A DNA stretch of 34,665 bases. Source: Snodgrassella alvi (GTDB taxonomy: Bacteria; Pseudomonadota; Gammaproteobacteria; Burkholderiales; Neisseriaceae). A program made the position numbers and the translations under genes. Under the pieces are notes generated by a model. The model was given only the letters and a program-made list of their open reading frames with translations. It was not told where the DNA came from and searched no databases. The stretch covers positions 1-34,665 of the forward strand of contig NZ_MDVC01000060.1 in assembly GCF_002777425.1 (NCBI RefSeq). The letters run 5' to 3'. Below are positions 8,930 through 27,720 of this stretch, piece by piece (position 1 is the stretch's first letter; every line of letters starts with the position of its first letter).

Positions 8930-9038
8930 GTTTCAGGCATACTCAATCAATGTTTTATTGAATATTTTCTTTGAAAAATCCGTCAGTTGTTATGAATAAA
9001 ATTAATAATCTGTTTTTGGAATTTTTTATTTGTACCAA

Positions 9039-10319
9039 TCAACAGGATTTATTTTCAGTCTGGCGTCGTGAAAACTGGATACCAAGCTGTTTTAATTTGC
9101 GATAAAGATGGGTACGCTCCAGGCCTACTTTTTGGGCTACTTTGCTCATGTTATGCCCTTCCTGAGCAATATGGTATTCGAAATAGCGTCTTTCCAGATC
9201 TTCGCGCAATTCACGCAGAGGCAGATCAAAATTAAAACCAGTCATGCTTTCATGTGGGTGGTTATATTTGAACTGATTCAGGATGGTACTGATGGCGTTA
9301 ACGTCGATTTCGTTATGTTCTGCTGTTAGCATCAGGCTTTTGACAACACTGCGTAGTTGTTCCAGATTGCCCGGCCAGTCATACTGGCGCAGTTCATTCA
9401 GGGCTGCTGTAGTAAATTTTACTGGCGGAATTTTCTGACTTTCTGCCAGCTCGGTAGTAATTTGTTCTACCAGAAATACCATGTCATCCAGTTGTGAGCG
9501 TAATGGAGGAATGGCAACAATTAGTGATGAAAGGGTATTAAGCAGTTTGTTATCCTGTAGCGGGTCGGTAATCATTTCCTTGATTGGCCGGCTACAAACA
9601 CAGATGATGCGTACATTGTAGCGATCTGCTTTGGTCAGAATAAAGCCGATGCTTTGCTGGGTGCTTTTGCCGTATTGAGCAATATCACCCAGATAGAGTA
9701 TGCCACCGGTGGCTTTCTGCAATAATTCAATGGGTGCGTCAACAATCTGCTCTACTTTTGATGGTTCCACCCACGGAGTTGCGCTTTTATGAAATGAACG
9801 TGCAACCAGTTCAAAAGGTGAACCCAGCTCTCCAGTTAGCAGTACAGGAGTGCTGAATTTGGCTATACGTTCTAGATGCTGATTCAGCTCCTTGATAGCA
9901 GGGCTATGCCCGAGTTTGTCTAATGACAGATTGGAGGCAGCCTGCATCTGTCCATATTTCAGGGCACGATCCACTGTGCTGAGCAGTTTTTGCAGGGAAA
10001 TGGGTTTTTCCAGAAAATCCAGTGCACCGATTTTGGTTGCTTCTATCGCGGTATCAATACTGGCGTGGCCACTCATCATTACCACTGGCATGGTTAACTG
10101 ACCGGATTTTGCCCATTCTTTCAGTAAAGTAATGCCATCGCAATCTGGCATCCAGATATCCAGCAATACCATGGCAGGACGGGTTTGCTGACGCAGTTGG
10201 CGGGCAGTATCGGCATTTTCGGCCGTGGTGACGGTATAACCTTCGTCTTGTAGGATTTCCGATAATAAGTCACGGATACCTACTTCATCGTCAACAATTA
10301 AAATATCACTGCTTCGCAT
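9039..10319 (-). CDS. ntrX: NtrX-type response regulator with degenerate AAA+ domain
   Basis: This 426-residue regulator partners the NtrY kinase encoded just upstream. Residues 1-120 are a receiver domain with acidic D10/D11, phospho-acceptor D54 (VLLDIWMP), S83 and K105 (FLEKP). Residues ~135-350 correspond to the sigma54 AAA+ domain but are damaged. Walker A is GELGSPFE where GETGTGKE is expected, Walker B is ILYLGDIA, and no GAFTGA loop is seen. The YDWPGNLEQLR stretch survives. Residues ~370-416 are a Fis-type helix-turn-helix (MSKVAQKVGLERTHLYRKLK). It therefore probably binds DNA without activating sigma54. NtrYX of Neisseria gonorrhoeae has been linked to respiratory genes. The gene overlaps ntrY by 14 nt, which implies translational coupling. 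Confidence 0.92.
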   Translation of the reverse strand: MRSSDILIVDDEVGIRDLLSEILQDEGYTVTTAENADTARQLRQQTRPAMVLLDIWMPDCDGITLLKEWAKSGQLTMPVVMMSGHASIDTAIEATKIGALDFLEKPISLQKLLSTVDRALKYGQMQAASNLSLDKLGHSPAIKELNQHLERIAKFSTPVLLTGELGSPFELVARSFHKSATPWVEPSKVEQIVDAPIELLQKATGGILYLGDIAQYGKSTQQSIGFILTKADRYNVRIICVCSRPIKEMITDPLQDNKLLNTLSSLIVAIPPLRSQLDDMVFLVEQITTELAESQKIPPVKFTTAALNELRQYDWPGNLEQLRSVVKSLMLTAEHNEIDVNAISTILNQFKYNHPHESMTGFNFDLPLRELREDLERRYFEYHIAQEGHNMSKVAQKVGLERTHLYRKLKQLGIQFSRRQTENKSC

Positions 10320-12408
10320 TTCTATTCACCTGTAAGGGTAAGGTTATTTTGACACAAGCCAGTCCGTTTTTCTGATTACTGATCTGGATCCGCCCGCCGT
10401 GTTCTTCAATGATTTTTTTGACTACTGGTAATCCCAGTCCGGTACCACCGGGTTTGTCTGTTACATAAGGGTCAAATGCATGTAATAACATCTCCTGACT
10501 GAATGTTTTGCCATTATTGCTTACGTAGATAAGGATGTGTTCGTTATTTAGCTCGGTTTGTACGCTGACTTCGGGTGAGATATCAGCCGTGGCTGCTTCC
10601 ACTGCATTTTTTAGCAGATTATGAATAACCTGACGTAATGCCCCACTGTCGGCGTTAACATTCATTGCTATCTTACTCAAATTAACCGCAAATGTACAAT
10701 TACTACCTTCGTAAAGTACCAAAACCTCGCGTATTAATTCATTTAAATCAAGATTTGTGAACTTTAACGCTGGAGAACGGGAATAGTTGCGGAATGCTTC
10801 AACCATATCTTTCATCGCTGCTACCTGTCGAATAATAGTATTGGTGGCGCGGTTGAGAATCTGGGCATCTGCATCGCTGAGTTTGTCACTGAGTTTCCAT
10901 GCCAGCCGTTCGGCAGATAATTGGATAGGTGTCAGTGGATTGCGGATTTCATGTGCCAGCCGTTGCGCAACCTCACCCCAGGCCGCTTCTTTTTGTGCGC
11001 TTACCAGAGCAGTGACATCATCAAATACCAGTATAGTACCGCCGCCACTGTCTTCAGGTAGTGGTGTGGCTTTGCCAAGCAGTATCAGGGTTTCATCTTT
11101 GTGATTATAGGTGATTTGTGCTGGTTTGTTCTGGTGTTCCGTAGCCAGAATCTGCTGGAATACATCTGCCAGCATTGCTGCCCGTGGGCTTTGTTCGGCC
11201 AGCTGGTTTATGTTCTGTCCAAGAATTGAGTTCAGACTTTGCCCGAGAATGTTTTCGGCCATCTTGTTAAAAGTAATCAGGCAGTTTTCTGGATTAAGGG
11301 TAACCACGCCGGTAGTCAGGCTGTTGAGAATATATTCCAGATAATGTCTGGCTGCTTCCTGCTGCTCTCGTGAATGGCGCAGCTGGACTGTCATGTGATT
11401 AAACAAATCAGTTAGTTTACCCAGTTCGTCATTACGGTGAATGGTTTGCTGGACATCCAGATCACCTTTGGCTACTGCTCGGGCACCATCTGCCAGCGAC
11501 AGAATTGGTGCAACAAACTGGCGTGCAAAATACAGGGCTACCAGTAAGGCTAAAACAATTGCCAGCAGGGTGGCCATCAATAGAGTGGCCAGAAAAAAGG
11601 TTTGTAAACTTTTTTTGGTAAAACTCAGTTCACCATATTTGGCGCGGGCAGCTTCAATCAGTGTGGCATCCTGCGCAACTTTGGGCGGAATGGGTTGACG
11701 GAAAAACAGGGCATTATCATTGTTGTGGCCCGGTAAAATCAGCCAGCCCTGAGCATAAAGGATGTTATTGATGCTTTCAATTTCCCGCACTGAACCTGTG
11801 GTATGTAACTGGTGTATCAGATTCTTGTTAAGTTCCGGCGTGGAAAGATGCAGTGGATTATATTCGGCAACAAGCTGGTTACTGCGGAGATTGTGGATAT
11901 TTAGCTGGCTAAACTGTTTGCTTTTGCCATTACTTTCGAGAACCGGTAAGAGTGGTTCTTTCATACCATCGGCGGCAATCAGGGCAATCTGGATATTGGC
12001 TGCACGGCGGACACTATTGTCCAGTTCATAATCCAGAGCGGATTTACTCAGGCTGATACTGCGGTTGAGTGCTTCTTCAGTATCGTTACCAAACCATGAG
12101 TGAATGCTGTGTGAAATAAACTGTGCAGATACCCCAAACAGGAACAGGCCAGGTAATACAGCTACCAGTGTAAACATAGAGGCCAGACGCATGGCAATTT
12201 TGGAACCGAATTCATGCCGGTGCCGGCTCTGTAATAGTTTCCACCAGTAAGAACCAGCCATTAATGTCAGTGTAAGTACCAATAGTGAAGCAAAGCCAAA
12301 TGCAAACCAGAAATATTGCGATAAAACACTGGTATTACCGGTAGCGACGGCCAGAACATACAGGGTGACTACACAGAGCACTGCCATGACCAGAATTAGC
12401 CGTCTCAT
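10306..12408 (-). CDS. ntrY: NtrY-type membrane sensor histidine kinase
   Basis: This 700-residue inner-membrane kinase presumably phosphorylates NtrX. Transmembrane segments lie near 4-23, 34-57, 76-98 and 271-294, with a ~170-residue extracytoplasmic region before the last one. A HAMP linker (about 295-345), a PAS domain (about 352-465), a HisKA domain with H486 in AHEIRNPLTPIQLSAERL, and an ATPase domain follow. The ATPase domain has an N box LLKNAVEAA (about 598-606), and G boxes including PGGTGLGLPVVKKIIEEHGG (653-672). It starts 5 nt after the DUF4390 gene stop and overlaps ntrX, so it is in the fmt-rsmB operon. The signal is unknown. Redox or respiratory control is inferred from the Neisseria homologue. 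Confidence 0.94.
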   Translation of the reverse strand: MRRLILVMAVLCVVTLYVLAVATGNTSVLSQYFWFAFGFASLLVLTLTLMAGSYWWKLLQSRHRHEFGSKIAMRLASMFTLVAVLPGLFLFGVSAQFISHSIHSWFGNDTEEALNRSISLSKSALDYELDNSVRRAANIQIALIAADGMKEPLLPVLESNGKSKQFSQLNIHNLRSNQLVAEYNPLHLSTPELNKNLIHQLHTTGSVREIESINNILYAQGWLILPGHNNDNALFFRQPIPPKVAQDATLIEAARAKYGELSFTKKSLQTFFLATLLMATLLAIVLALLVALYFARQFVAPILSLADGARAVAKGDLDVQQTIHRNDELGKLTDLFNHMTVQLRHSREQQEAARHYLEYILNSLTTGVVTLNPENCLITFNKMAENILGQSLNSILGQNINQLAEQSPRAAMLADVFQQILATEHQNKPAQITYNHKDETLILLGKATPLPEDSGGGTILVFDDVTALVSAQKEAAWGEVAQRLAHEIRNPLTPIQLSAERLAWKLSDKLSDADAQILNRATNTIIRQVAAMKDMVEAFRNYSRSPALKFTNLDLNELIREVLVLYEGSNCTFAVNLSKIAMNVNADSGALRQVIHNLLKNAVEAATADISPEVSVQTELNNEHILIYVSNNGKTFSQEMLLHAFDPYVTDKPGGTGLGLPVVKKIIEEHGGRIQISNQKNGLACVKITLPLQVNRNAKQ

Positions 12409-18020: not shown

Positions 18021-18767
18021 ATGAGCAGTTTCACTCCCATTGTTGAGAACCAGACTAGCCACAAACCATTATTCTATGCCAATGGTTTAACTCAGTATAC
18101 GATATTGTGCGATTTTGACGGTACCATTAGTGAGAAAGATGTTACTGATACCTTACTGAACCATTTCGGCAATGAAAAATGTGCCTTATTGGAGCAGCAA
18201 TGGTTGGATGGCATGATTGGTTCGCGTGAATGTATGCGTCAGCAAATTGCTAATATGCAAGCTAGCCAGGCAGAATTGGACAGTGTGCTGGCACAAATCA
18301 GAATTGATCCAGCATTTAGCGAATTTATTGATCTGGTGCGTAATGCACATTTAAATGTGCATATTGTCAGTGATGGGCTGGATTATGCAATTCGGACGAT
18401 TCTGAAGCGATATAATTTTGATTTCTTGCCTATTTTTGCAAATCGTTTATTGCATGATCAGCGGCAGGGCTGGAAACTGGATTTTCCTTATGCCAATGAA
18501 CATTGTCTTAAAGCCAGTGGCAATTGTAAATGTCAACATCGCCGACAGTTAGTTGGTTTTCAAAAGATTTTTTATGTTGGTGATGGTACTTCGGATTTTT
18601 GTGTGGCAGATAAAGTAGATTTGGTTTTTGCTAAAGATAAGCTAATTGATTTTTGTCAGCAGCAGGGCATTCGACACTATCCGATTAAGGATTTTAATGA
18701 TGTTGTTGCCATTTTGCCTGACCTGATTACAGCACCAACTGAAAATTACTGTCTGTCTCCTGCATAA
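18021..18767 (+). CDS. HAD-superfamily (IB) phosphatase, MtnX-like
   Basis: This 248-residue phosphatase has the HAD signatures in order: motif I LCDFDGTIS (nucleophile D31, acid/base D33), motif II IVSDGLD (S117), and motif IV YVGDGTSDFCVA (D188, D192). A helical cap lies between motif I and motif II. A Cys cluster (C162, C169, C171 in HCLKASGNCKC) precedes motif IV, as in MtnX-type and related phosphatases. MtnX acts in methionine salvage on 2-hydroxy-3-keto-5-methylthiopentenyl-1-phosphate. No other mtn genes are nearby, so the substrate here is open. It is the first of five tightly spaced plus-strand genes. The N-terminal ~25 residues before the HAD core are unusual, and a later start is possible. 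Confidence 0.82.
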   Translation: MSSFTPIVENQTSHKPLFYANGLTQYTILCDFDGTISEKDVTDTLLNHFGNEKCALLEQQWLDGMIGSRECMRQQIANMQASQAELDSVLAQIRIDPAFSEFIDLVRNAHLNVHIVSDGLDYAIRTILKRYNFDFLPIFANRLLHDQRQGWKLDFPYANEHCLKASGNCKCQHRRQLVGFQKIFYVGDGTSDFCVADKVDLVFAKDKLIDFCQQQGIRHYPIKDFNDVVAILPDLITAPTENYCLSPA

Positions 18768-18791
18768 GGCTTTAATAGCTGATTTCAAATT

Positions 18792-19613
18792 ATGATTCAA
18801 GATTCTTCCTATTTTTTACCCGGTAATCGCAATGGCGTGCTCCTGATTCACGGTTTAACCGGTACACCAAATGAGATGCGTATTCTGGCCAAAGGGTTGC
18901 ATCAGGCCGGTTTTACTGTGTATGCAATGCAGCTGGCCGGTCATTGTGGTGATGAGACTGATTTATGTCAGACCACGTGGCATGACTGGTATGCCAGTGT
19001 GCAGGAAGCTGCGCAGTTTTTACAGCAACATGTTGACTACCTATTCGTAGCCGGATTATCGATGGGCGCGCTATTGGCATTGAAGTTGGCTGCTGATCAG
19101 CCAGAGCTGGTAAAGGGTGTTGGTGTCTATGGGGTAACGTTTAGCTATGATGGCTGGTCTATTCCCTTCTGGGCAAAACAGCTTTTTGTTTTGTTACCCT
19201 TTTTAAAAAAATTACATTTATTTCAGAAAACCTCTTTTATTGAAAAACCACCATATGGGCTGAAAGACGAACGTATCCGTGCAACTGTCGCTGCCAGTAT
19301 GTTCAGTGGCGACAGTGCCAGCGCCGGTCTGGCTGGCAATCCATTTCCGGCATTGGCGGAAATGCAGACACTGGCCAAACTGATGCGGCGGCAACTGCCA
19401 CAGGTAAAGGCTCCCTGTCTGATTATGCATTCCGGTCACGATGATATTGCTAATATCAATACCAATGCCCGTTTAGTAGAAAAGCATGTTAGCGGAACGA
19501 CTCGATTTGTGGTGCTGGATGACAGTTATCATCTGATTACCATTGATCGGCAGCGGCGCGAAGTTATCAACCAGTCAGTTGCCTTTTTTGAAAATATTGC
19601 TCAGTCAGCTTAA
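18792..19613 (+). CDS. Alpha/beta hydrolase (carboxylesterase / monoacylglycerol-lipase type)
   Basis: This 273-residue cytoplasmic hydrolase has no signal peptide. The oxyanion-hole motif is LLIHGLTGTPNEM (18-30), the nucleophile elbow is AGLSMGA with S90, the acid is D217 or D218 in MHSGHDDIAN, and the base is H247 in DDSYHLITID. A lid-like insertion (about 117-185) contains the hydrophobic WAKQLFVLLPFLKKL. The layout resembles Est30-type carboxylesterases and monoacylglycerol lipases (S33 family), which cleave short acyl esters. The spacing of 24 nt from the phosphatase gene and 35 nt to the first SMR gene suggests one transcript. The natural substrate is unknown. A thioesterase or acyl-transfer role in the cluster is conceivable. 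Confidence 0.85.
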   Translation: MIQDSSYFLPGNRNGVLLIHGLTGTPNEMRILAKGLHQAGFTVYAMQLAGHCGDETDLCQTTWHDWYASVQEAAQFLQQHVDYLFVAGLSMGALLALKLAADQPELVKGVGVYGVTFSYDGWSIPFWAKQLFVLLPFLKKLHLFQKTSFIEKPPYGLKDERIRATVAASMFSGDSASAGLAGNPFPALAEMQTLAKLMRRQLPQVKAPCLIMHSGHDDIANINTNARLVEKHVSGTTRFVVLDDSYHLITIDRQRREVINQSVAFFENIAQSA

Positions 19614-19648
19614 GTGAATACTCATCTTATAGCAGAAAGAAATATTGT

Positions 19649-20005
19649 ATGACCCTGATTGTGTTCATGTTGTGGTTGGCCAACGTTTGTTTTGATACGC
19701 TTGGACAAACTGCATTTAAATATGCAGCCATAGCGCCGAATAATCGTGATGGCTGGTATTACTGGGTCGACCTGTTCAGTAATTACTGGTTATGGATTGG
19801 CATCGGTTCCTATGTCGCTGAATTTTTATTGTGGTTGGCGTTTTTAAGTCAGGTGCCTTTGTCACAGGGTATATTACTGGGTTCAATTAATATTATTGTA
19901 CTGATGCTGGTTGGACGTGTGCTGTTTCAGGAAAAACTTACTCGTTTTCGGCTGATTGGCATGTTCTGTATCACCATCGGGGTAGTACTGGTAGGAGCGT
20001 CATAA
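19649..20005 (+). CDS. Small SMR/EamA-type membrane transporter subunit 1 (ArnE/F-like)
   Basis: This 118-residue protein has four predicted transmembrane helices (about 2-22, 45-66, 71-92 and 98-117). Helix 1 carries FDTLGQTAFKYAA, with D16 buried in the membrane. The second half includes the family-like SQVPLSQGILLGSINIIVLML and RLIGMFCITIGVVLVG. Size, helix count and the GQ-x-x-FK motif resemble the ArnE/ArnF subunits, which flip undecaprenyl-phosphate-aminoarabinose, more than multidrug SMR pumps with Glu14. Its stop overlaps the start of the next gene (TAATG), so the two are likely made in equal amounts and work as a heterodimer. The cargo is not known. Confidence 0.78.
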   Translation: MTLIVFMLWLANVCFDTLGQTAFKYAAIAPNNRDGWYYWVDLFSNYWLWIGIGSYVAEFLLWLAFLSQVPLSQGILLGSINIIVLMLVGRVLFQEKLTRFRLIGMFCITIGVVLVGAS

Positions 20006-20412
20006 TGCGTAAATTTTATTTAATTGGTTTTGCGCTCTTATTATTGTTCGATACGCTAGGGCAAAGCAGTTTTAAACTAACTGCTATTCATGCCCAGCCC
20101 CTAGAGGCAAGTTTAGACTGGATTATCCGGGTATTTACTCAGCCATGGGTCTATATTGCCATTGCAGGCTACATTGGGGCATTTTTTACTTGGATGATGT
20201 TACTTAAGAAAGCCCCAGTTGGCCCGGCGTTTGCTGCTTCGCATCTGGAAGTAGTGACAGTTATGGTGGTTTCAGCTTTTCTGTTTCATGAACATATCAC
20301 TGCTATACGTATTATTGGTGCAGTATTTATTGTGGCTGGCATCATCTTTTTGGCTCTGGCTGAAAAAGAAATCATCCAAACTGAACACAGCAAAGATGAT
20401 GAAGCGTGTTAA
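20005..20412 (+). CDS. Small SMR/EamA-type membrane transporter subunit 2 (ArnE/F-like)
   Basis: This 135-residue protein has four predicted transmembrane helices (about 4-23, 47-68, 72-95 and 99-120) and a polar C-terminal tail. Helix 1 carries FDTLGQSSFKLTA, with D16 at the same position as in the preceding gene product. The second half has GPAFAASHLEVVTVMVVSAFLFHEHITAIRIIG, typical of EamA/SMR halves. The two proteins are clearly related paralogues. They overlap by one base and probably form an antiparallel pair. The matching membrane Asp in both suggests a functional site for ion coupling or head-group binding; this is inference from position. Confidence 0.78.
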   Translation: MRKFYLIGFALLLLFDTLGQSSFKLTAIHAQPLEASLDWIIRVFTQPWVYIAIAGYIGAFFTWMMLLKKAPVGPAFAASHLEVVTVMVVSAFLFHEHITAIRIIGAVFIVAGIIFLALAEKEIIQTEHSKDDEAC

Positions 20413-20442
20413 ATTTTATGGGTCTGAGTTTTAGTGCTATTT

Positions 20443-21630
20443 ATGCCCAGCTATTATGAAAATCCGCCTACTGCCGGTTTACCATTGAAATGGCGTGACT
20501 GGTTGCCGACACAGCAATCACTGCTAGACAGTGTCAGTGCACAATTAAATTTGTCGCCATTACAGGTTACCTGTTCCGGTACGGCCGCGCTAATTATTGC
20601 CTTAACCACGCTGGCACAACAACATCCCCAACGCAAAACCGTAATTGTTCCGGCATACACCTGTCCACTGGTAGCTTTAGCCATTCACCATTGTGGTTTA
20701 CAGATACAGCTATGTGATTTAAGGCCAGACAGCATTGATCTGGATATTGCACAACTTACTACCCTGTTAAATGAGCATGTATTGGCTGTCATACCCACTC
20801 ATCTGGGTGGACGGGTAACGGATGTAGATACCGTTAAACAACTGGTACAGCCACACCAGATTAGCGTAATAGAAGATGCGGCGCAGGCATTGGGTGCTGA
20901 AGTAGGCAAACATGGCGATATTGTATTGTTTAGCCTGGCGGCCGGCAAAGGGCTAACCATGTATGAAGGAGGTTTACTAACCGCAGCTGATACACAGTTA
21001 CGCCGCAGTTTACAAACCACCGCCAACAGGTTATTACCATTGCAGCTTAAATGGGAAGCACTGCGAACTCTCGAGCTTTTAGGGTATACAGCCTTATATA
21101 ATCCTACTGGGTTGCACTTTGCCTATGGACACGGCCGGCGCAAAGCACTGCGTCGGCAGCAATGGGTTGCAGCAGTAGGCGATGATTTTGATTTTGCTAT
21201 CCCTTTGCATCGGGTTAGCCGCTGGCGTCAGAATGTCGCTGCGAATGCCTTACAGCGCTTACCGGCATTTTTACATACCCTGCAACAACAGGCGCAGCAA
21301 CGTATTCAACAGTTGCAGAGCATTACCGGTGTACAGGTGATTATTGACCAGTATGGTCAGGGAGTATGGCCATTTCTGATGGTGTTATTGCCCAGCGGCC
21401 AGCACCGCGATGCAGTATTAAACCAATTATGGGCTAGTCCTTTAGGCGTAACGCGCTTATTCATCCATACACTGGCACAATACGATTACTTGCGCCCGAT
21501 TGTACCTACTATGGCCACGCCAAATGCTGAAGATTTTGCTGCACGTATGTTAACCATTACCAATAGCCCATGGCTGACTGATGCACAATTTTCCCGAATA
21601 GGTGAAGTTATTCAAGATGCCGTTTGCTGA
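20443..21630 (+). CDS. DegT/DnrJ/EryC1/StrS-family PLP aminotransferase
   Basis: This 395-residue PLP enzyme (fold type I) belongs to the family that aminates sugar nucleotides and includes ArnB. Motifs: CSGTAALIIAL (44-54, phosphate site), VPAYTCPLVALAIHHCGLQ, a D-L-R-P-D-S-I-D-L stretch, IPTHLGGRVTDVD, IEDAAQALGAE with D145, and FSLAAGKGLTMYEGG with the Schiff-base lysine K169. The usual TK-N-L-TTGEGG is altered, so the substrate may not be a standard sugar nucleotide. ATG 20443 (MPSYYENPP) is preferred; GTG 20434 is an alternative. It follows the SMR pair by 30 nt. Its 3' end overlaps the convergent ureohydrolase gene by 19 nt. Confidence 0.83.
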   Translation: MPSYYENPPTAGLPLKWRDWLPTQQSLLDSVSAQLNLSPLQVTCSGTAALIIALTTLAQQHPQRKTVIVPAYTCPLVALAIHHCGLQIQLCDLRPDSIDLDIAQLTTLLNEHVLAVIPTHLGGRVTDVDTVKQLVQPHQISVIEDAAQALGAEVGKHGDIVLFSLAAGKGLTMYEGGLLTAADTQLRRSLQTTANRLLPLQLKWEALRTLELLGYTALYNPTGLHFAYGHGRRKALRRQQWVAAVGDDFDFAIPLHRVSRWRQNVAANALQRLPAFLHTLQQQAQQRIQQLQSITGVQVIIDQYGQGVWPFLMVLLPSGQHRDAVLNQLWASPLGVTRLFIHTLAQYDYLRPIVPTMATPNAEDFAARMLTITNSPWLTDAQFSRIGEVIQDAVC

Positions 21631-22502
21631 TGTTGAGCTAAAGCAGTGAGCAGCTGCTGGTTAACAGCATGGTGTTGTTGCTGCCATGCAGCCAGCGTGA
21701 CTGCCGGAATCGGTTCCTGTTTGTCCATGGCGCTAAGCAGACGTTTGAGCAAGCTGGTGTATTGCCATTGAGAAACTTCTCCGGTAATGTCACTACCAAT
21801 AATGCGCTGATTCAGAGCAGCAATGACACTCAATAGATGCTCTAGCTGCATACGACCCTGATCCCAGTTGGTTTGTACCACATCCTTACCCAGCACATCC
21901 TTATCAATTGAAACATATACTGATTCACTGGTTTGTTGCTGTGCATGAATAAATGCGCTAATCAGCTCTTCTGGTGAAGCAAAGGCACGAAAAGCCTGTT
22001 GTAGGCCGATTTTTTTTGCCCAGCCAACTTGAACATCCATACACCAGTAAGTTAATTTACCTTGAAATAATGGCGCCAGTCGGTTTTCCCAGCAGTGAGC
22101 AAGGCCAATATCATCTGAAGTAATACCCAGTACATGTACGTGGCTGACAAAAGGCAGTTGTGCCACATAGCTTACCCATGAGCCACAATGAATCCCAAAC
22201 AGATAGCGCATATTGTCTGGATGATTGTCAAAAATAACTATCTGTATTGGGTTAGTAGCACTGAAATACTGCTGTAAACGTTTAATCAGTAATAGTGAAA
22301 CATGGTGGTAATCGCCGCTACCCATCAGTACCGTACCATAGCACGCTGGTAACTGTCGTGCCAGTTCTCCCTGTAACTGTTTGAATTTGGCTTGTGAACA
22401 GCCAAAACGAATAGCTTCCTGCCATTGCCCCAGTTCAATTCTGAAAGCATCTGCTATTGTGCCCGTACTGTGGTCAAAATCCAGAATTACCGGTTTATTC
22501 AT
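21612..22502 (-). CDS. Divergent ureohydrolase (arginase/agmatinase/formiminoglutamase superfamily)
   Basis: This 296-residue protein has the order of metal-binding motifs of the arginase fold: GSGDYHH (61-67, for GGDHS), FDNHPD (D92, H94, D96, for DAHxD), SIDKDVL (D200, D202, for SxDxDxxDP) and DITGEVS (238-244, for the D-x-x-E motif near the guanidinium). All six expected Mn ligands therefore have counterparts, but the loops between them depart from arginase and agmatinase, and the DP after the third motif is missing. It probably hydrolyses a guanidino or amide-like C-N bond. The substrate is unknown. ATG 22502 gives MNKPVILDFD; a longer reading from 22562 would run into the upstream gene. 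It overlaps that gene by 8 nt, implying coupled translation. Confidence 0.75.
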   Translation of the reverse strand: MNKPVILDFDHSTGTIADAFRIELGQWQEAIRFGCSQAKFKQLQGELARQLPACYGTVLMGSGDYHHVSLLLIKRLQQYFSATNPIQIVIFDNHPDNMRYLFGIHCGSWVSYVAQLPFVSHVHVLGITSDDIGLAHCWENRLAPLFQGKLTYWCMDVQVGWAKKIGLQQAFRAFASPEELISAFIHAQQQTSESVYVSIDKDVLGKDVVQTNWDQGRMQLEHLLSVIAALNQRIIGSDITGEVSQWQYTSLLKRLLSAMDKQEPIPAVTLAAWQQQHHAVNQQLLTALAQHQQTAS

Positions 22503-23583
22503 GTATTTTACTATCCTGACTATGTTGCTTACTGGCTTCCTGCCAAGTTTTGTCCTGCTCAAAGCGGCTACTGATCTTGGATAGTAAGGTTCTTAAAACC
22601 GGGTTACGTACATAGACCATATGCTTGGTAAAAGTGAAATGTGCGCCTAAGGATGCTTTCACTTGCGGATCAGTCCAACCGGCTACATAAAAATCCAGTC
22701 CGTGCTGTCTAGCGTAATCCAGATTATAAAACCAGCTCAGATAATACAGATTCAGCTTCCGAGCCTGTGGATAAACAAAGCCAATATATTTATCTACCAG
22801 CATATTATTGAGAACAAAACAAATATTGTATCCAATCAATTGCTGTTGATAATGATAGGTAAAAATTCGGGCTTGATTGCTGCTGTCCTGCAACAGACGC
22901 ACAAAAAATTCCCGGGTTAATAAATCAAAATGAATTTCACTTTGATTGTAAACATTCAAATATAACTGATAAAACTGCGCTAAAACGTCCTCATCCTGAA
23001 AATACGCATCACCGCTGCGTAGACAACCAGTTTCAACCAGTGACTGAGTTTTCAACTTACGTCGAAAATTTTTGCGGCGTTGATAAGATAAGCGGCTCAG
23101 ATATTCGTCAATATCATTAAAATCAATAGGCACCCACGCTAAAGCCTGACCTTCCACTGCAATAAATCCCTGTTGCTGCAATGATTGAATCAGTGTGGCT
23201 GCGTAATCATTTGCCTGAGTATCCAGTAATGGTGACTGTTGCGGAATATCTTTCACAATCAGCAGCGGGTATTTTTTGCCATAATTCTGCTTTATTTCTA
23301 AAGCTAATTGCTGTGCTGATTGGTGCTGAGTGAACAAAGCATATTCAGATACCGTTGTGCCAATAAAACAGGTAAGAGGTTGCAGAAACCGTTGCCACCA
23401 ACGAAATAGTGGCCAATGACGAATTTTTTGCTGAAAAGCAGAATCAGCGGTAGTGAGTAAATTAAAGCGTGCAGCAAAAGCGGGTACATCACTCGTTAGT
23501 TGCCATGCAGTAAAATCTTTTGGAGGACTGGCCAAAAAAGTTTCGACCAGTTCATCCGGTTCCAGTTGAGTCAGATAATTCAT
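22495..23583 (-). CDS. FemAB/GNAT-like acyltransferase
   Basis: This 362-residue protein resembles the GNAT-related FemAB-like group (BioF2-like acetyltransferase, PF13480 type). The characteristic stretch YLSRLSYQRRKNFRRKLK lies near 174-191. After it come a helical segment (VLAQFYQLYLNVYNQSEIHFDLLTREFF) and beta strands with RIFTYHYQQQLIGYNICFVLNNMLVDKYIGF, then WTDPQVKASLGAHFTFTKHMVYVRNP at the C terminus. Members of this group transfer acyl or aminoacyl groups to amines. There is no signal peptide or membrane helix. AGGA lies 4 nt before the ATG. It overlaps the ureohydrolase gene by 8 nt and follows the class III aminotransferase gene by 55 nt, so all three are probably one operon. Confidence 0.72.
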   Translation of the reverse strand: MNYLTQLEPDELVETFLASPPKDFTAWQLTSDVPAFAARFNLLTTADSAFQQKIRHWPLFRWWQRFLQPLTCFIGTTVSEYALFTQHQSAQQLALEIKQNYGKKYPLLIVKDIPQQSPLLDTQANDYAATLIQSLQQQGFIAVEGQALAWVPIDFNDIDEYLSRLSYQRRKNFRRKLKTQSLVETGCLRSGDAYFQDEDVLAQFYQLYLNVYNQSEIHFDLLTREFFVRLLQDSSNQARIFTYHYQQQLIGYNICFVLNNMLVDKYIGFVYPQARKLNLYYLSWFYNLDYARQHGLDFYVAGWTDPQVKASLGAHFTFTKHMVYVRNPVLRTLLSKISSRFEQDKTWQEASKQHSQDSKIHE

Positions 23584-23638
23584 AAAATCCTATACGGCAG
23601 CAGGCTTAAATACCAGCCGAGCTGCCATCTTACGTGGC

Positions 23639-25054
23639 TTAAACGTTTAATTCTTTTTTAGCACGCGTAATCAATTGATCCAGTAATTCAATACCTTGAT
23701 CAATTTCCTGTTTCGTAATATGCAATGATGGGGCAAAAGTAATCACATTCTTGTAATAACCGCCAATATCCAATACCAGCCCCATTTTCTGGCCTTGCCA
23801 GTCGAGATCGCCAGACATACCGATATCTACCATCTTGTCTACCAGCGCCTTATTTGGTGTAAAGCCGTCTTCAGTACAGATTTCGGCACGCAACGCCAGT
23901 CCCAGACCATCTACTTCACCGATTTCCTTATGGCGCTGTTCCAAAGTTTTCAAGCCTTCAAGGAAATAGGCACCGCTTTCCATAACCATTTTCTCATAAT
24001 CGGTTTCTGCCATCATTCTGAATACTTCCAGACCCACGGCTGTACCCAGCGGATTTGAAGCAAAAGTAGAATGAGTAGAACCAGCGGGGAATACCTGCGG
24101 ATTAATCAGCTCTTCCCGTGCCCACAAGCCGCCGAGAGGATTCAGACCATTGGTCAATGCTTTAGCAAACACCAGCATATCTGGTTGTACATCAAAGTGT
24201 TCAATCGACCATAACTTACCAGTGCGATAAAAGCCCATTTGAATTTCATCGACCACCAGCAAAATACCATACTGATCCAGAACTTTTTTCAGGCCTTTAA
24301 AATAGTTACGTGGCGGCACAATATAACCACCAGTACCTTGCAGCGGCTCTATATAGAACGCCGCATATTCGGCCTGACCTGCTTTCGGATCCCACACACC
24401 GTGGTATTCCGTTTCAAACAAACGGGCGAAATCAGCTACCAGATGTTCTCCATATTCCTCTGCTGTCATACCTTTAGGCCGACGGAACGGATAAGGAAAC
24501 GGAATAAACATTGCACGGTCAGCAAAATGACCATAGCGACGGCGATAGCGGAAGCTTGAAGTAATAGAAGATGCACCCAGCGTACGACCGTGGTAGCCAC
24601 CTTCAAACGCAAACATCAATGACCGGCCTTCAGACGCATTACGGATAATTTTCAGTGAATCCTCAATACACTGAGAACCGCCAACATTAAAATGAACCCG
24701 ACCATCACGCCCAAATTTGCGCTTCATATCCTCAGCAATAGTTTTTGCCAGCTCAATTTTGGTTGGATGTAAATACTGGCTTGCACACTGCGGCAAAGTA
24801 TCTACCTGCTGCTTTAACACCGTATTCAAGCGTTCATTAGCATAACCAAAATTACAGGCCGAATACCACATCTGCAAATCCAGATAGGGCGTGCCATTTT
24901 TATCATACATATAGCTGCCTTCGCAGCCATCAAAAATTTTCGGCGGATTAACATAATGTACCGTATCACCAAAAGAGCAATACTTTGCTTCATCTGCGAG
25001 CAACTGCGCATCATCCCGACGATTTTCAATTGTTTGAGCACTTGGCTTACTCAT
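23639..25054 (-). CDS. Class III PLP aminotransferase
   Basis: This 471-residue enzyme of the omega-aminotransferase group (GABA, ornithine, diaminobutyrate type) has FEGGYHGRTLGASS, IEPLQGTGGYIVPP, the cofactor-binding Asp in LLVVDEIQMGFYRTGKLWSIE (D269), and the Schiff-base lysine in MLVFAKALTNGLNPLGG (K298). THSTFASNPLGTAVGLEV is the C-terminal domain signature. The phosphate-binding segment reads NVGGSQCIEDSLKI instead of the common GSDAVEAAIK, which may mark an uncommon subgroup. Substrates are likely an omega-amino acid or diamine and an oxo acid, but the exact pair cannot be fixed. An upstream in-frame ATG (25066) sits too close to its AGAAAG. The start at MSKPSAQ has GGA 7 nt before it. 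Confidence 0.85.
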   Translation of the reverse strand: MSKPSAQTIENRRDDAQLLADEAKYCSFGDTVHYVNPPKIFDGCEGSYMYDKNGTPYLDLQMWYSACNFGYANERLNTVLKQQVDTLPQCASQYLHPTKIELAKTIAEDMKRKFGRDGRVHFNVGGSQCIEDSLKIIRNASEGRSLMFAFEGGYHGRTLGASSITSSFRYRRRYGHFADRAMFIPFPYPFRRPKGMTAEEYGEHLVADFARLFETEYHGVWDPKAGQAEYAAFYIEPLQGTGGYIVPPRNYFKGLKKVLDQYGILLVVDEIQMGFYRTGKLWSIEHFDVQPDMLVFAKALTNGLNPLGGLWAREELINPQVFPAGSTHSTFASNPLGTAVGLEVFRMMAETDYEKMVMESGAYFLEGLKTLEQRHKEIGEVDGLGLALRAEICTEDGFTPNKALVDKMVDIGMSGDLDWQGQKMGLVLDIGGYYKNVITFAPSLHITKQEIDQGIELLDQLITRAKKELNV

Positions 25055-25452
25055 CATTAATTCCATTCTTTCTAAATAAAAAGCTTATAAAAAAGTGCAT
25101 AATTAATACTATTATATCCTGCTAAAGCATAAAATCTGTAGAAAACAATACCCTGATAGCCATATAAAACCATTAACTGCTACAAATTAAATTATCTTTG
25201 CATTTAAATCATAAGCATAAAATTCAAAAATACAGCATATTCAACAGCCATAACAGAATAAATCATCTGCAAATATATACCCTCACCAAATTTTATGCTT
25301 CACAACGATTAACATAATCAAATTAAAAACAGCAAATTGTATGTTGTAGAGTAAAACCAGTTTTTTTACTAATATTTCTCAATCAGTTAAACTTAAATCT
25401 TAATAAACACGCAATTAGCCCGGCTGCAATACGTCCGCATACTAATACACCT
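25055..25452. promoter_or_regulatory. Divergent promoter region with a thrice-repeated AAGCATAAAAT motif
   Basis: This ~400-bp, very AT-rich spacer separates the divergent class III aminotransferase and MFS genes, so it must hold both promoters. The 11-mer AAGCATAAAAT occurs at 25125-25135 and 25213-25223 on the plus strand and inverted at 25290-25300. The last two extend to a perfect 12-bp inverted pair 64 nt apart (25213-25224 and 25289-25300). This might be an operator array for a shared regulator. Base composition makes chance repeats more likely than in balanced DNA. No regulator gene is adjacent. Confidence 0.4.
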
Positions 25453-26652
25453 ATGAACACAGAACCTAACCGTATCCCCCATCCACGCTGGCTATTATTT
25501 GCCCTGGCAGTTGGTGGTTTTGCCATTGGCACTACCGAATTTGCCACTATGAGTGTTTTGCCTTATATCGCCAGCGGCTTAAATATCAGTGAACCCACAG
25601 CAGGGCATCTAATCAGTATTTATGCCCTTGGTGTTGTCGTTGGAGCACCCGTTATTGCTATATTTGGTGCGCGTTTCAGCCGGCGTAGCCTGTTACTGGT
25701 GCTCATGGCATTTTTTGCTTCGGCACATCTGGGCACCATGCTCGCCCCCAACTACAACAGCATGATGCTATTTCGCTTTTTAAGTGGCTTACCACATGGC
25801 GCTTATTTTGGTGTTGGCGCGTTGGTCGCCGCAGCCATGGTACCACCAGAAAAAAGAACACAGGCTGTTGGATTAATGATGATAGGCTTAACCATAGCCA
25901 CCACCATCGGCGTACCCTTAAGCAGCTGGCTGGCTCAGGCAGTAGGTTGGCGCGTTGTCTTTCTCATCGTAGCCTTACTGGCTGCTACCACTGTCATCTT
26001 GGTGGCTCTTTTTTTGCCACCAAACTGCATGCAGGGTAGCGGTAGCAATGCCGTACGGGAACTCAGCGCGCTCACCAATCGTCAGATTTGGCTGACACTG
26101 GCCATAGGTGCCATCGGCTTTGGCGGCATGTTTGGCATATATGCCTACATGGCCTCAACCTTAGAAAACATTACCGGCATGTCACCCAAAAGCGTGCCAT
26201 TGGTTATGTGTTTATACGGCGTAGGCATGACCCTAGGCAACATCATCATACCGCGTCTGGTTGGACGCCATGTGATGTCAGGATTAGCATGGTTACTGGC
26301 ATGGTCGGCTATCATGTTAGCCTTATATCCTTTTGCTCTACATTATCCATACTGGATATGCATACAAGTCGTTCTCATCGGCATGAGCGGTGCCGTAGGT
26401 ACATTGTTACAAATTCGTCTTATGGATGTAGCCAAAGATGCCCAAACTCTGGCCGCAGCACTGAATCACAGTGCCTTCAACGCCGCCAATGCCCTGGGGC
26501 CTTATTTGGGTGGTTTAACGATTGCCGCAGGCTGGGGCTGGAGCAGTACCGCATGGGTTGGTGTTATGCTGGCAATAATTGGCTTAATCGTATGGTGGTT
26601 TACCGTACGTGACGAACAGCGTACTAATGCCAAAAGCCAGCTGCCACGATAA
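25453..26652 (+). CDS. MFS efflux transporter (DHA1 family, AraJ/PbuE-like)
   Basis: This 399-residue inner-membrane transporter has about 12 transmembrane helices. Helix 1 carries ALAVGGFAIGTTEFATMSVLP, the hallmark start of the AraJ/NepI/PbuE group. A motif-A-like loop (FGARFSRRSLLL) joins helices 2 and 3, and LFRFLSGLPHGAYFGVGALVAA marks helices 4 and 5. Known members export sugars, purine nucleosides or drugs by proton antiport. It is divergent from the class III aminotransferase operon and could export that pathway's product, which is inference from position. An inverted repeat GGACAGA/TCTGTCC (26673-26693) follows the stop but lacks a T-run. Confidence 0.9.
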   Translation: MNTEPNRIPHPRWLLFALAVGGFAIGTTEFATMSVLPYIASGLNISEPTAGHLISIYALGVVVGAPVIAIFGARFSRRSLLLVLMAFFASAHLGTMLAPNYNSMMLFRFLSGLPHGAYFGVGALVAAAMVPPEKRTQAVGLMMIGLTIATTIGVPLSSWLAQAVGWRVVFLIVALLAATTVILVALFLPPNCMQGSGSNAVRELSALTNRQIWLTLAIGAIGFGGMFGIYAYMASTLENITGMSPKSVPLVMCLYGVGMTLGNIIIPRLVGRHVMSGLAWLLAWSAIMLALYPFALHYPYWICIQVVLIGMSGAVGTLLQIRLMDVAKDAQTLAAALNHSAFNAANALGPYLGGLTIAAGWGWSSTAWVGVMLAIIGLIVWWFTVRDEQRTNAKSQLPR

Positions 26653-26850
26653 TTCGTTCCATATCCTCAATAGGACAGATGGACATTCTGTCCAAAAATT
26701 AGTCAGATTACACAAAAATGAATATCTGAATAAAAGTACAATGTAAAAACGCGTAACTCAAGTTGCAAATGGCTGTTATCATTAATATTCTGTTTATATA
26801 GGTAAAAGTAGTTTAACTATTAACAAACCAACCGGCAAAGGGTGGTAATT

Positions 26851-27720
26851 ATGACTGATAAACAGTTGCAACCAGAGATAGAAACGCCTGATACCGAGCA
26901 AGCTGAAAAACAAAGCAATATCTGTACCGACAAAAATAGCAAACACAAAAAGCTAACCAAAAAGAAATACTACAAAGAGCTGGAAAAACTTCAGGGTGAA
27001 ATGGTCGCTCTGCAAGAATGGGTGAAAGCTTCTGGGCAGAAAGTTTGCATCATCTTCGAAGGACGTGATGGTGCAGGCAAGGGTGGTGCGATTAAAGCAA
27101 TTACCGAAAGAGTCAGTCCACGCATATTTCAGGTAGTAGCCTTACCAGCACCGAGTGAACGCCAGAAAACACAAATGTACATGCAGCGTTACATTCCCCA
27201 TTTACCTGCAGCCGGCGAAGTTATCATCTTTGACCGTAGCTGGTATAACCGTGCTGGCGTAGAGCGTGTTATGGGATTTTGCACAGAACAGGAAAGCAAA
27301 GAATTTCTCGAAATCATTCCTTTTATGGAAAAGGCCATCATCAATTCGGGCATCATCCTGCTCAAATACTGGCTTGAAGTAAACATGGAAGAACAGCACC
27401 GACGCATGCTTGGTCGGATTAATGACCCGCGTAAAATCTGGAAACTCTCTCCCATGGATATCAAATCTTACAGTCGCTGGTATGACTACTCCCGTGCCCG
27501 TGACGAAATGATTATGGCTACCGATACCTCATGGGCTCCATGGTATGTTGTCGATTCCAACGACAAAAAGAAAGCGCGTTTGAACATCATCAAACACATA
27601 CTCAGCGAAATTCCATACAAAAAAACACCACGGAAAAAAGTCGAACTACCAAAGCGGCAGGATAAAGGCGATTATCAGGAACCCAATTACCCTTATCGTT
27701 ACATTCCGGAAAAATACTAA
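26851..27720 (+). CDS. ppk2: Polyphosphate kinase 2 (PPK2, class I type)
   Basis: This 289-residue P-loop kinase moves phosphate between polyphosphate and nucleoside diphosphates or triphosphates, usually favouring NDP phosphorylation. A ~35-residue charged N-terminal tail is followed by Walker A FEGRDGAGKGGAIK (69-82), PSERQKTQMYMQRYIPHLP, Walker B IIFDRSWYNRAGVERVMGF with D128, and the lid RRMLGRINDPRKIWKLSPMD. It is a single-domain enzyme. ATG 26851 is chosen over the in-frame GTG 26842 because AAGGGTGG is a good ribosome site for it. It has ~200 bp of its own upstream DNA and a strong terminator, so it is probably monocistronic. Confidence 0.95.
   Translation: MTDKQLQPEIETPDTEQAEKQSNICTDKNSKHKKLTKKKYYKELEKLQGEMVALQEWVKASGQKVCIIFEGRDGAGKGGAIKAITERVSPRIFQVVALPAPSERQKTQMYMQRYIPHLPAAGEVIIFDRSWYNRAGVERVMGFCTEQESKEFLEIIPFMEKAIINSGIILLKYWLEVNMEEQHRRMLGRINDPRKIWKLSPMDIKSYSRWYDYSRARDEMIMATDTSWAPWYVVDSNDKKKARLNIIKHILSEIPYKKTPRKKVELPKRQDKGDYQEPNYPYRYIPEKY

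What the first reader, a model, noticed from the sequence alone, without database searches (positions are those of the whole stretch)
18021..25054. Convergent eight-gene cluster: phosphatase, hydrolase, ArnEF-like pair, two aminotransferases, acyltransferase, ureohydrolase
Seen: five tightly spaced plus-strand genes meet three minus-strand genes with coupled overlaps, next to a divergent MFS exporter and flanked by gene-poor DNA. Known: DegT enzymes, FemAB/GNAT enzymes, class III aminotransferases and ureohydrolases are typical of small amino-metabolite pathways, and SMR pairs such as ArnE/F flip amino-sugar-lipids. Inference: the set makes an amine-bearing, acylated compound or lipid head group and moves it across the inner membrane. 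I do not recognise this combination as a described pathway.
Basis: partly seen in the sequence, partly recalled or inferred. Interest (0 to 1): 0.72.

Follow-up and report, generated by a model that had tools for sequence, protein, structure and literature searches.

The report
Shared gut-symbiont amino-lipid gene cluster
A block of eight genes in a bee-gut bacterium turns out to be one conserved, undescribed pathway, found in scattered branches of the Proteobacteria and apparently passed between bee-gut lineages, that most likely builds an amine-bearing, lipid-like molecule and flips it across the membrane.

Summary
The eight genes at 18021-25066 are real and intact. The window is from Snodgrassella (bee gut, Neisseriaceae). 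Homologues travel together far outside the genus: of 80 loci found with the ureohydrolase-like protein, 78 also carry the FemAB-like gene, 72 each SMR gene, 65 the hydrolase, 49 the class III PLP gene, 44 the DegT gene and 43 the HAD gene within 10 kb. In a sample of 398 Pseudomonadota genomes, all 16 with a strong ureohydrolase match also have the class III gene (25 of 398). Many relatives add a ketosynthase and carrier protein, a DevBCA-type exporter, MipA/OmpV or a two-component system. The Snodgrassella copy nests with Orbaceae (Gilliamella, Frischella), so it moved horizontally between these lineages. Six of the eight match, by length and annotation, genes already listed singly as shared by all Snodgrassella and by no other group of that study; no paper I found describes the set. 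My reading: a pathway for an amine-bearing amphiphile, flipped by the SMR pair. The boldest version, a FemX/MprF-like transferase adding arginine and an arginase-like enzyme trimming it to ornithine, is untested.

The parts
18021..18767 (+). A: HAD-IB phosphatase, MtnX/PHOSPHO-like (248 aa)
   Evidence: PF06888 58 bits, TIGR01489 107 bits over its cut-off; MtnX equivalog cut-offs missed. D31, D33, S117, D188 and D192 kept in 65 of 65.
18792..19613 (+). B: alpha/beta serine hydrolase, monoacylglycerol-lipase-like (273 aa)
   Evidence: PF12146 4e-22; PDB best 5xks monoacylglycerol lipase 5.6e-30. Ser90 in 84 of 86 (Cys in 2), His247 in 85 of 86.
19649..20005 (+). C: SMR/EamA subunit 1 (118 aa)
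   Evidence: EamA 25.2 bits (below 28.2), weak ArnF/ArnE hits; four hydrophobic segments. In 72 of 80 loci.
20005..20412 (+). D: SMR/EamA subunit 2 (135 aa)
   Evidence: EamA 35.9 bits, over cut-off; three hydrophobic segments called; same strand as C in 83 of 83 loci with both, gap within 60 bp in 76.
20434..21630 (+). E: DegT/DnrJ/EryC1 PLP enzyme (398 aa; GTG start, or ATG at 20443)
   Evidence: PF01041 1e-39; Lys172 in 53 of 53. Optional: in 44 of 80 loci; not seen near the cluster in Gilliamella.
21612..22502 (-). F: ureohydrolase-fold metal hydrolase (296 aa)
   Evidence: Arginase-type metal-ligand positions invariant in 93 of 93; model pLDDT 94; all 50 Foldseek PDB rows shown are ureohydrolase-family entries.
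22495..23583 (-). G: FemAB_like/GNAT transferase (362 aa)
   Evidence: PF04339 5e-14, PF13480 4.9e-10; model pLDDT 92; Foldseek ranks 1-26 are FemX, LysPG/AlaPG synthase/MprF or Sbb17/Sba18 entries.
23639..25066 (-). H: class III PLP enzyme (471 aa from the ATG at 25054; 475 from 25066)
   Evidence: PF00202 9.5e-73; Lys298 and Asp269 in 74 of 74; Thr439 in 74 of 74, where the four PDB relatives whose printed alignment reaches that point (of five printed) carry Arg.

Best explanation
One pathway, not eight unrelated genes. It makes an amine-bearing amphiphile (a lipid or lipid-like head group) and moves it across the inner membrane. Proposed order: a fatty-acid-synthase-derived acyl intermediate (housekeeping in Snodgrassella; dedicated ACP and ketosynthase in many relatives) is turned into an amino-lipid by H (non-canonical class III PLP enzyme), A (phosphatase) and B (serine hydrolase). 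G, a FemX/MprF-fold transferase, loads a further residue on it. F, coupled to G, hydrolyses a guanidino or similar group on the loaded residue; the simplest case is arginyl to ornithyl plus urea. E adds or exchanges another amine where present. The C/D heterodimer flips the product to the outer leaflet. In some relatives a MacB-type DevBCA/NodT exporter then carries it out; in Snodgrassella no such exporter was found, so the product probably stays in the envelope. Shown: gene set, conserved active-site residues, co-occurrence, predicted folds of F and G, horizontal ancestry. Inferred: every substrate, the order of steps, lipid nature, arginine chemistry, flipping. Confidence 0.6 is for the pathway and its amphiphilic, amine-bearing product; for the arginyl-to-ornithyl step about 0.2.
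For: Co-occurrence: in 80 loci found with F, G 78, C and D 72 each, B 65, H 49, E 44, A 43 within 10 kb; G and F on one strand in 88 of 88 loci with both, gap within 60 bp in 85, overlapping in 73. All 16 strong F genomes are among the 25 H genomes of 398; all 3 F genomes among the 6 H genomes of 369. All eight genes run on one strand, with a response regulator, in L107 and L145. Lipid link: FabF-like KS in 31 and ACP in 29 of 80 loci; DevC permease 12 and NodT-type channel 12; MipA/OmpV 24; OmpR-type regulator 28. In distant lineages the set splits into ACP-KS-A-H-B and, elsewhere in the genome, a G-like gene, next to SMR gene(s) in 3 of the 6 such places read (L176, L178, L179). That recalls MprF, where synthase and flippase are fused (recalled). 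G fold: Foldseek ranks 1-26 are aminoacyl-tRNA-dependent or aminoacyl-lipid enzymes, first entry named with acetyl-CoA (VipF) at rank 31; weak ATE_C (arginyl-tRNA transferase) similarity in 23 of 35 members at E up to 1, best 0.0011. F: ligand positions kept, ureohydrolase fold.
Against: No product, substrate or expression data exist here. Snodgrassella has no KS/ACP in the cluster: its KS matches in 5 genomes are 31-42% identical, FabF-level, and two genomes without F have them too; ACP was not searched. No DevC match in 8 of 8 genus genomes searched (no positive control). So the lipid/export link rests on relatives, and DevC and the NodT channel are in only 12 of 80 loci each. By sequence G belongs to PF04339/PF13480, which as I recall contains acyl-CoA-dependent N-acyltransferases such as bacterial ceramide synthase, whose structure I do not know to be in the PDB; profile comparison of G with ATE was no better than an unrelated control. 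In 3 of 6 distant places read, the G-like gene has no SMR neighbour (L173-L175). F-fold TM-scores are only 0.43-0.53 of the query. Two genus genomes at 99% completeness lack F (G011, G012).
Confidence: 0.6

Rival explanations
1. G is an acyl-CoA or acyl-ACP-dependent N-acyltransferase (ceramide-synthase-like): H and A make an amino-alcohol or amino-lipid, G acylates its amine, and F removes an amidino group from a precursor. The product is an acylated aminolipid.
For: G's significant sequence families are PF04339 and PF13480; dedicated ACP and KS sit beside G in many loci; B is monoacylglycerol-lipase-like.
Against: Closest solved structures of G are aminoacyl-tRNA-dependent transferases, with acetyl-CoA enzymes lower. 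The PDB may hold no PF13480 N-acyltransferase, so this is weak. The membership of ceramide synthase in PF13480 is recalled; my paper search for it found nothing.
Confidence: 0.3
2. The cluster makes a soluble amine- or guanidine-containing secondary metabolite (signal, antibiotic, polyamine conjugate) that the SMR pair and, in relatives, the DevBCA/NodT system export.
For: DegT, class III PLP and ureohydrolase-fold enzymes are common in such pathways (recalled); Sbb17/Sba18, among the top structural relatives of G, were solved with streptothrisamine and act in streptothricin-type biosynthesis (recalled); MacB-type exporters also carry non-lipids (recalled).
Against: FAS-type KS/ACP without reductases, a lipase-like hydrolase and EamA/ArnE-F-like SMR proteins rather fit a lipid; the set behaves as genus core in Snodgrassella (11 of 14 genomes carry F; Table 2 of PMC9239279), unusual for a typical secondary metabolite.
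Confidence: 0.2
3. Ordinary unrelated metabolic genes that happen to be neighbours after transfer.
For: Each protein belongs to a broad known family.
Against: Conserved order and co-occurrence; none of the eight reaches the cut-off of a functional (equivalog) NCBIfam model among those shown (for H 25 of 69 models shown).
Confidence: 0.04

Closest known systems
MprF (lysyl/alanyl-phosphatidylglycerol synthase-flippase)
   Same: Tandem-GNAT transferase fold of G (6lv0 TMq 0.56); a synthase paired with a flippase, seen most clearly where SMR genes sit next to G-like genes.
   Different: G has no PF09924 match in any of 35 members at E up to 1; the flippase is an SMR pair, not the MprF membrane domain; extra PLP, phosphatase, hydrolase and ureohydrolase genes. 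The window's genome has no PF09924 match.
Peptide arginases such as OspR (arginine to ornithine in RiPPs)
   Same: A ureohydrolase-fold enzyme with an arginase-type bimetal site; E. [quoted passage not shown]
   Different: PF12640 is matched by 1 of 36 members at E 0.2 only; F has the classical arginase motif order; no RiPP precursor was looked for.
ArnE/ArnF flippase
   Same: Paired small EamA/SMR proteins presumed to flip a lipid.
   Different: Far below equivalog cut-offs; no Arn glycosyltransferase among the eight genes.
DevBCA-TolC exporter (heterocyst glycolipids)
   Same: DevA/DevB/DevC-type ATPase, adaptor and permease with a NodT-type channel beside part of the relatives.
   Different: Below DevA/B/C cut-offs; DevC not found in 8 of 8 Snodgrassella genomes searched.
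Snodgrassella core-specific gene list (PMC9239279, Table 2)
   Same: Six entries match by length and annotation: MtnX 248, YvaK esterase 273, EmrE 118, EmrE 135, SpeB 296, ArgD 471 aa.
   Different: Listed singly among 25 genes in the section I read; not recognised there as one cluster and given no joint function.

Membership tests
Ureohydrolase (arginase/agmatinase) superfamily (protein F) | Six metal ligands in GGDHS, DAHXD, SXDXD-type motifs | tested here: met
   H65 and H66, D91, H93, D95, D199, D201 in 93 of 93 (numbering of a query without the start Met, add 1 for the full protein); which of the two His binds metal is not settled
Ureohydrolase (arginase/agmatinase) superfamily (protein F) | alpha/beta/alpha arginase fold and Pfam match | tested here: met
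   50 of 50 Foldseek rows shown are ureohydrolase family, TMq 0.43-0.53; PF00491 in 36 of 36 members at E up to 1, best 7e-10; the window protein itself 21.9-22.0 bits at a cut-off of 22
Ureohydrolase (arginase/agmatinase) superfamily (protein F) | Hydrolysis of a guanidino group | not testable with these tools
   needs enzyme assay
Peptide arginase (PF12640) | PF12640 match | tested here: not met
   1 of 36 members at E 0.2
Class III PLP aminotransferase (protein H) | PF00202 fold and catalytic Lys | tested here: met
   9.5e-73; K298 in 74 of 74
Class III PLP aminotransferase (protein H) | Arg that binds the alpha-carboxylate of the amino donor | tested here: not met
   Thr439 in 74 of 74; the four PDB relatives aligned through that point have Arg. 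The role of this Arg is recalled; sequence alignment only
MprF / LPG synthase (protein G) | PF09924 domain | tested here: not met
   no match in 35 members at E up to 1
FemAB (PF02388) | PF02388 match | tested here: not met
   absent among matches of 35 members at E up to 1; PF04339 FemAB_like in 35 of 35
Aminoacyl-tRNA-dependent transferase (protein G) | Uses aminoacyl-tRNA | not testable with these tools
   fold similarity only; profile test inconclusive
ArnE/ArnF | NCBIfam equivalog cut-off | tested here: not met
   27.0/31.7 bits (ArnF, cut-off 99), 23.0/30.1 bits (ArnE, cut-off 92) for C/D
MtnX | equivalog cut-off | tested here: not met
   87.5 bits against 303.2; 104.3 against 292
DegT sugar aminotransferases (PseC, ArnB and others) | equivalog cut-off | tested here: not met
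   best 104.3 against 423.5; PF01041 fold and Lys172 met
DevBCA exporter (in relatives) | NCBIfam devA/devB/devC cut-offs | tested here: not met
   222.6/295.8, 62.7/129, 71.8/290.35 bits for one example each

The most novel reading that the evidence does not exclude
A tRNA-dependent route to ornithyl-lipid: G loads arginine from arginyl-tRNA on to an amino-lipid made by A, B and H, and F, acting as a lipid-bound arginase, removes urea to leave ornithine, after which the SMR pair flips the cationic lipid. That would be a split MprF-like system in which a non-coded residue is made on the lipid after transfer, shared horizontally by Orbaceae and Snodgrassella in the bee gut.
Probability: 0.2. 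Interest if true: 0.85.

Novelty: new variant of a known kind. Interest (0 to 1): 0.6.

Why it matters
It links a set of genus-defining but unexplained Snodgrassella genes into one testable pathway, shows that the bee-gut symbionts Snodgrassella and Gilliamella/Frischella share it through horizontal transfer, and points to an undescribed envelope amphiphile in scattered Proteobacteria. If cationic, it could bear on how gut symbionts live with host antimicrobial peptides; that is a guess.

Tried and rejected
Rejected: MtnX methionine salvage, ArnE/F, PseC/ArnB-type sugar aminotransferase, peptide arginase and MprF as memberships (cut-offs or families not met). MFS (I) and PPK2 (J) as parts: I is in 7 of 80 loci, all Snodgrassella or uncultured Neisseriaceae; J is in 9, eight of them of that kind, plus L095. 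The ORF finder gave wrong frames in GC-rich loci and was replaced by a codon-usage finder of my own; counts rest on it, on a 70% length filter and, for H, on a score over 400 bits, and for RR, HK and MipA on a score of at least 90 bits, so they are approximate. Single-linkage counts and best-hit counts differ slightly (H 51 against 49, A 44 against 43, G 79 against 78, RR 31 against 28, HK 29 against 28). Many loci end at contig ends, so absences near the cluster are not proof. Only the best 80 of 153 F loci were returned. My F query and alignment A1 left out the start Met of F.

hhalign of G against ATE was inconclusive: ATE E 0.017 over 168 columns, the unrelated HAD control E 0.014 over 41 columns, LPG synthase (one sequence) E 0.11 over 142 columns (10 of 15 ATE loci and 1 of 4 LPG loci gave a usable ORF). 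Ideas without test: serinol phosphate, beta-amino acyl or methyl-ketone routes for H. Papers: ten searches; no paper on the combination was found in the listings. PMC9239279: section 6 read and passages, rest not; PMC10028609 and PMC12703449: passages; PMC9598484 and PMC10104596: searched for my terms only, none found.

Trees: one search used 47 of the 73 loci that had all five proteins (26 near-duplicates left out by hand), one search used 28 of 73. A1 held 36 of 93 F rows, A2 35 of 90 G rows.
Full report
What is there. The window lies in a 2.58-Mb, 115-contig genome whose nearest named relative at this locus is Snodgrassella alvi Nev4-2 (98% identity over 1175 columns). Eight intact ORFs occupy 18021-25066: A HAD-IB phosphatase, B alpha/beta hydrolase, C and D small SMR/EamA membrane proteins, E DegT PLP enzyme on the + strand; F ureohydrolase-like, G FemAB_like/GNAT, H class III PLP enzyme on the - strand. 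Best family matches are; none of the eight reaches an equivalog cut-off among the models shown (for H 25 of 69 are shown), while A reaches the subfamily models TIGR01489 and TIGR01488. dN/dS estimates against L020 are 0.017-0.101, so all eight appear under purifying selection.

Co-occurrence. F was found in 11 of 14 Snodgrassella genomes (window genome included), in 0 of 23 other genomes of the family, and in 1 of 24 other genomes of the order; in a class sample in 3 of 369, window genome included. A scan of GTDB species genomes gave 153 F relatives, of which 80 were returned: Snodgrassella, Gilliamella, Frischella, Orbus, Wohlfahrtiimonas, Dyella, Rhodanobacter, Rudaea, Dokdonella, Pigmentiphaga, Delftia, Comamonas and others. 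Within 10 kb of F in these 80: G 78, C 72, D 72, B 65, H 49, E 44, A 43. This set was chosen by F, and many loci end at contig ends. Using H instead, 6 of 369 class genomes (E up to 1e-150) and 25 of 398 phylum genomes (E up to 1e-130) have it. The 3 F genomes of the class sample are among those 6. A profile of F has matches in 17 of the same 398 phylum genomes, 16 strong (E below 1e-80) and one weak (1.6e-6, G692, not an H genome). All 16 strong ones are among the 25 H genomes; drawn at random this has probability about 1e-22, though the 16 come from 9 genera only and are not independent.

Order. C and D share a strand in 83 of 83 loci with both, G and F in 88 of 88 (73 overlapping), D and E in 52 of 52; A and B in 55 of 62, A and H in 23 of 61. 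Of 71 F loci with F, G, C and D, 70 are convergent as in the window and one has all on one strand (Orbus, L052). In L107 and L145 all eight genes follow a response regulator on one strand.

Wider context. Relatives add modules absent from the window: FabF-like KS (31 of 80) and ACP (29), DevC-type permease (12) with NodT-type channel (12), MipA/OmpV (24), OmpR-type regulator and kinase (28 each) (identities of one example each). L137 carries A-H-ACP-KS-G-F and E-D-C-B-HlyD-DevA-DevC side by side. L102 has H, D, C, B, A and the exporter but no E, F or G, and its whole genome (G067) has no F or G profile match. In lineages of another class the set is ACP-KS-A-H-B (L147-L149), and a G-like gene lies elsewhere in the genome. 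I read six such G-like places: in L176, L178 and L179 it is next to SMR gene(s), in L173-L175 it is not. Profile F was found in 11 of 22 H genomes and profile G in 19 of 22, the weaker ones at E 1e-20 to 1e-59. So A, H and B look like the oldest core, SMR and G the next layer, F and then E later additions. Snodgrassella has no DevC match in 8 of 8 genus genomes searched (no positive control). Its best KS match in 5 of 5 genomes is 39-42% identical, and genomes without F have it too; G005 and G012 hold further, weaker KS matches. ACP was not searched.

Enzymes. F keeps the arginase-type metal-ligand positions in 93 of 93 sequences; its model (pLDDT 94) matches ureohydrolases only among the 50 rows shown (agmatinase 7lox first, E 8.9e-8, TMq 0.50). 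G is PF04339/PF13480 by sequence; its model (pLDDT 92) ranks FemX, LysPG/AlaPG synthase/MprF and the aminoacyl-tRNA-dependent synthases Sbb17/Sba18 as the first 26 matches, with the first entry named with acetyl-CoA at rank 31 (ranks 27 and 28 are of unknown function). Weak ATE_C similarity appears in 23 of 35 members (best E 0.0011; 18.4 bits against a cut-off of 25 for the window protein), and G is the only ATE_C match in the window's genome (E 5e-4, below cut-off). A profile comparison with true ATE proteins was not better than an unrelated control. H has Lys298 in 74 of 74 but Thr439 in 74 of 74, where the four solved relatives aligned through that point carry Arg, so it is probably not a standard alpha-keto-acid aminotransferase. 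It is also the most conserved member: about 89% identical between Snodgrassella and Gilliamella, where F and G are about 60%.

History. In trees of B, C, D, F and G together, Snodgrassella falls among Orbaceae. The branch that joins it with Frischella and Gilliamella, leaving out Orbus hercynius, has support 99/99; its exact sister is unresolved (62/35). Holding Snodgrassella with the Burkholderiales copies is rejected (AU p 0.0026); holding Orbaceae as one clade without Snodgrassella is rejected more weakly (p 0.026). The groups were named after the first tree was seen, so these p-values are optimistic. Horizontal transfer is well supported; the direction from Orbaceae to Snodgrassella is likely but not firm.

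What it does. The most economical reading is one pathway to an amine-bearing amphiphile that the C/D pair flips, with G and F acting as a pair on the head group. If G takes arginine from tRNA, F beside it explains itself: ornithine has no tRNA, so a ureohydrolase would make it after transfer, as peptide arginases do in RiPPs (PMC10028609, passages). The acyl-transfer rival for G remains open. Neither substrate nor product is shown by any result here.

What is known. PMC9239279 (section 6) lists 25 genes shared by all Snodgrassella groups and specific to them in that analysis; six match this cluster by length and annotation but are listed singly, and the section discusses no common pathway. My ten paper searches (listed in Tried and rejected) found no description of the set; the library holds open-licence papers only, so subscription papers may exist.

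Noticed in passing
L060, L074, L079, L083, L086, L087, L091 (L074:10818-15640): Two cyanophycin-synthetase-like genes lie between F and E in seven Pigmentiphaga-type loci; in L074, the one tested, NCBIfam PRK14016 is passed by both (1248 and 1039 bits). Cyanophycin is an arginine store (recalled), which is suggestive next to an arginase-like gene but may be coincidence.
   Followed up: partly
window 25453-26652 and 26842-27720: The divergent MFS gene (nearest to Cmx/AraJ models, below cut-off) and PPK2 are neighbours in Snodgrassella (PPK2 also in L095), not part of the conserved set.
   Followed up: yes
L177 (G644) 9005-11721 and G644:C52: One 5.9-Mb genome carries both a Snodgrassella-type G-F and D-C unit and a second, distant G copy near its H gene.
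   Followed up: no
G011 and G012: Two 99%-complete genomes of the genus lack F, although Table 2 of PMC9239279 lists a matching gene as shared by all Snodgrassella of that study.
   Followed up: no
L150:9912-11291: A more distant H homologue (54%) stands alone, without other cluster genes within about 9 kb on either side, yet keeps the Thr in place of Arg.
   Followed up: partly
window 18021-18767 (protein A): A G-x-C-K-C motif is strongly conserved in the HAD protein family; its role is unknown.
   Followed up: no
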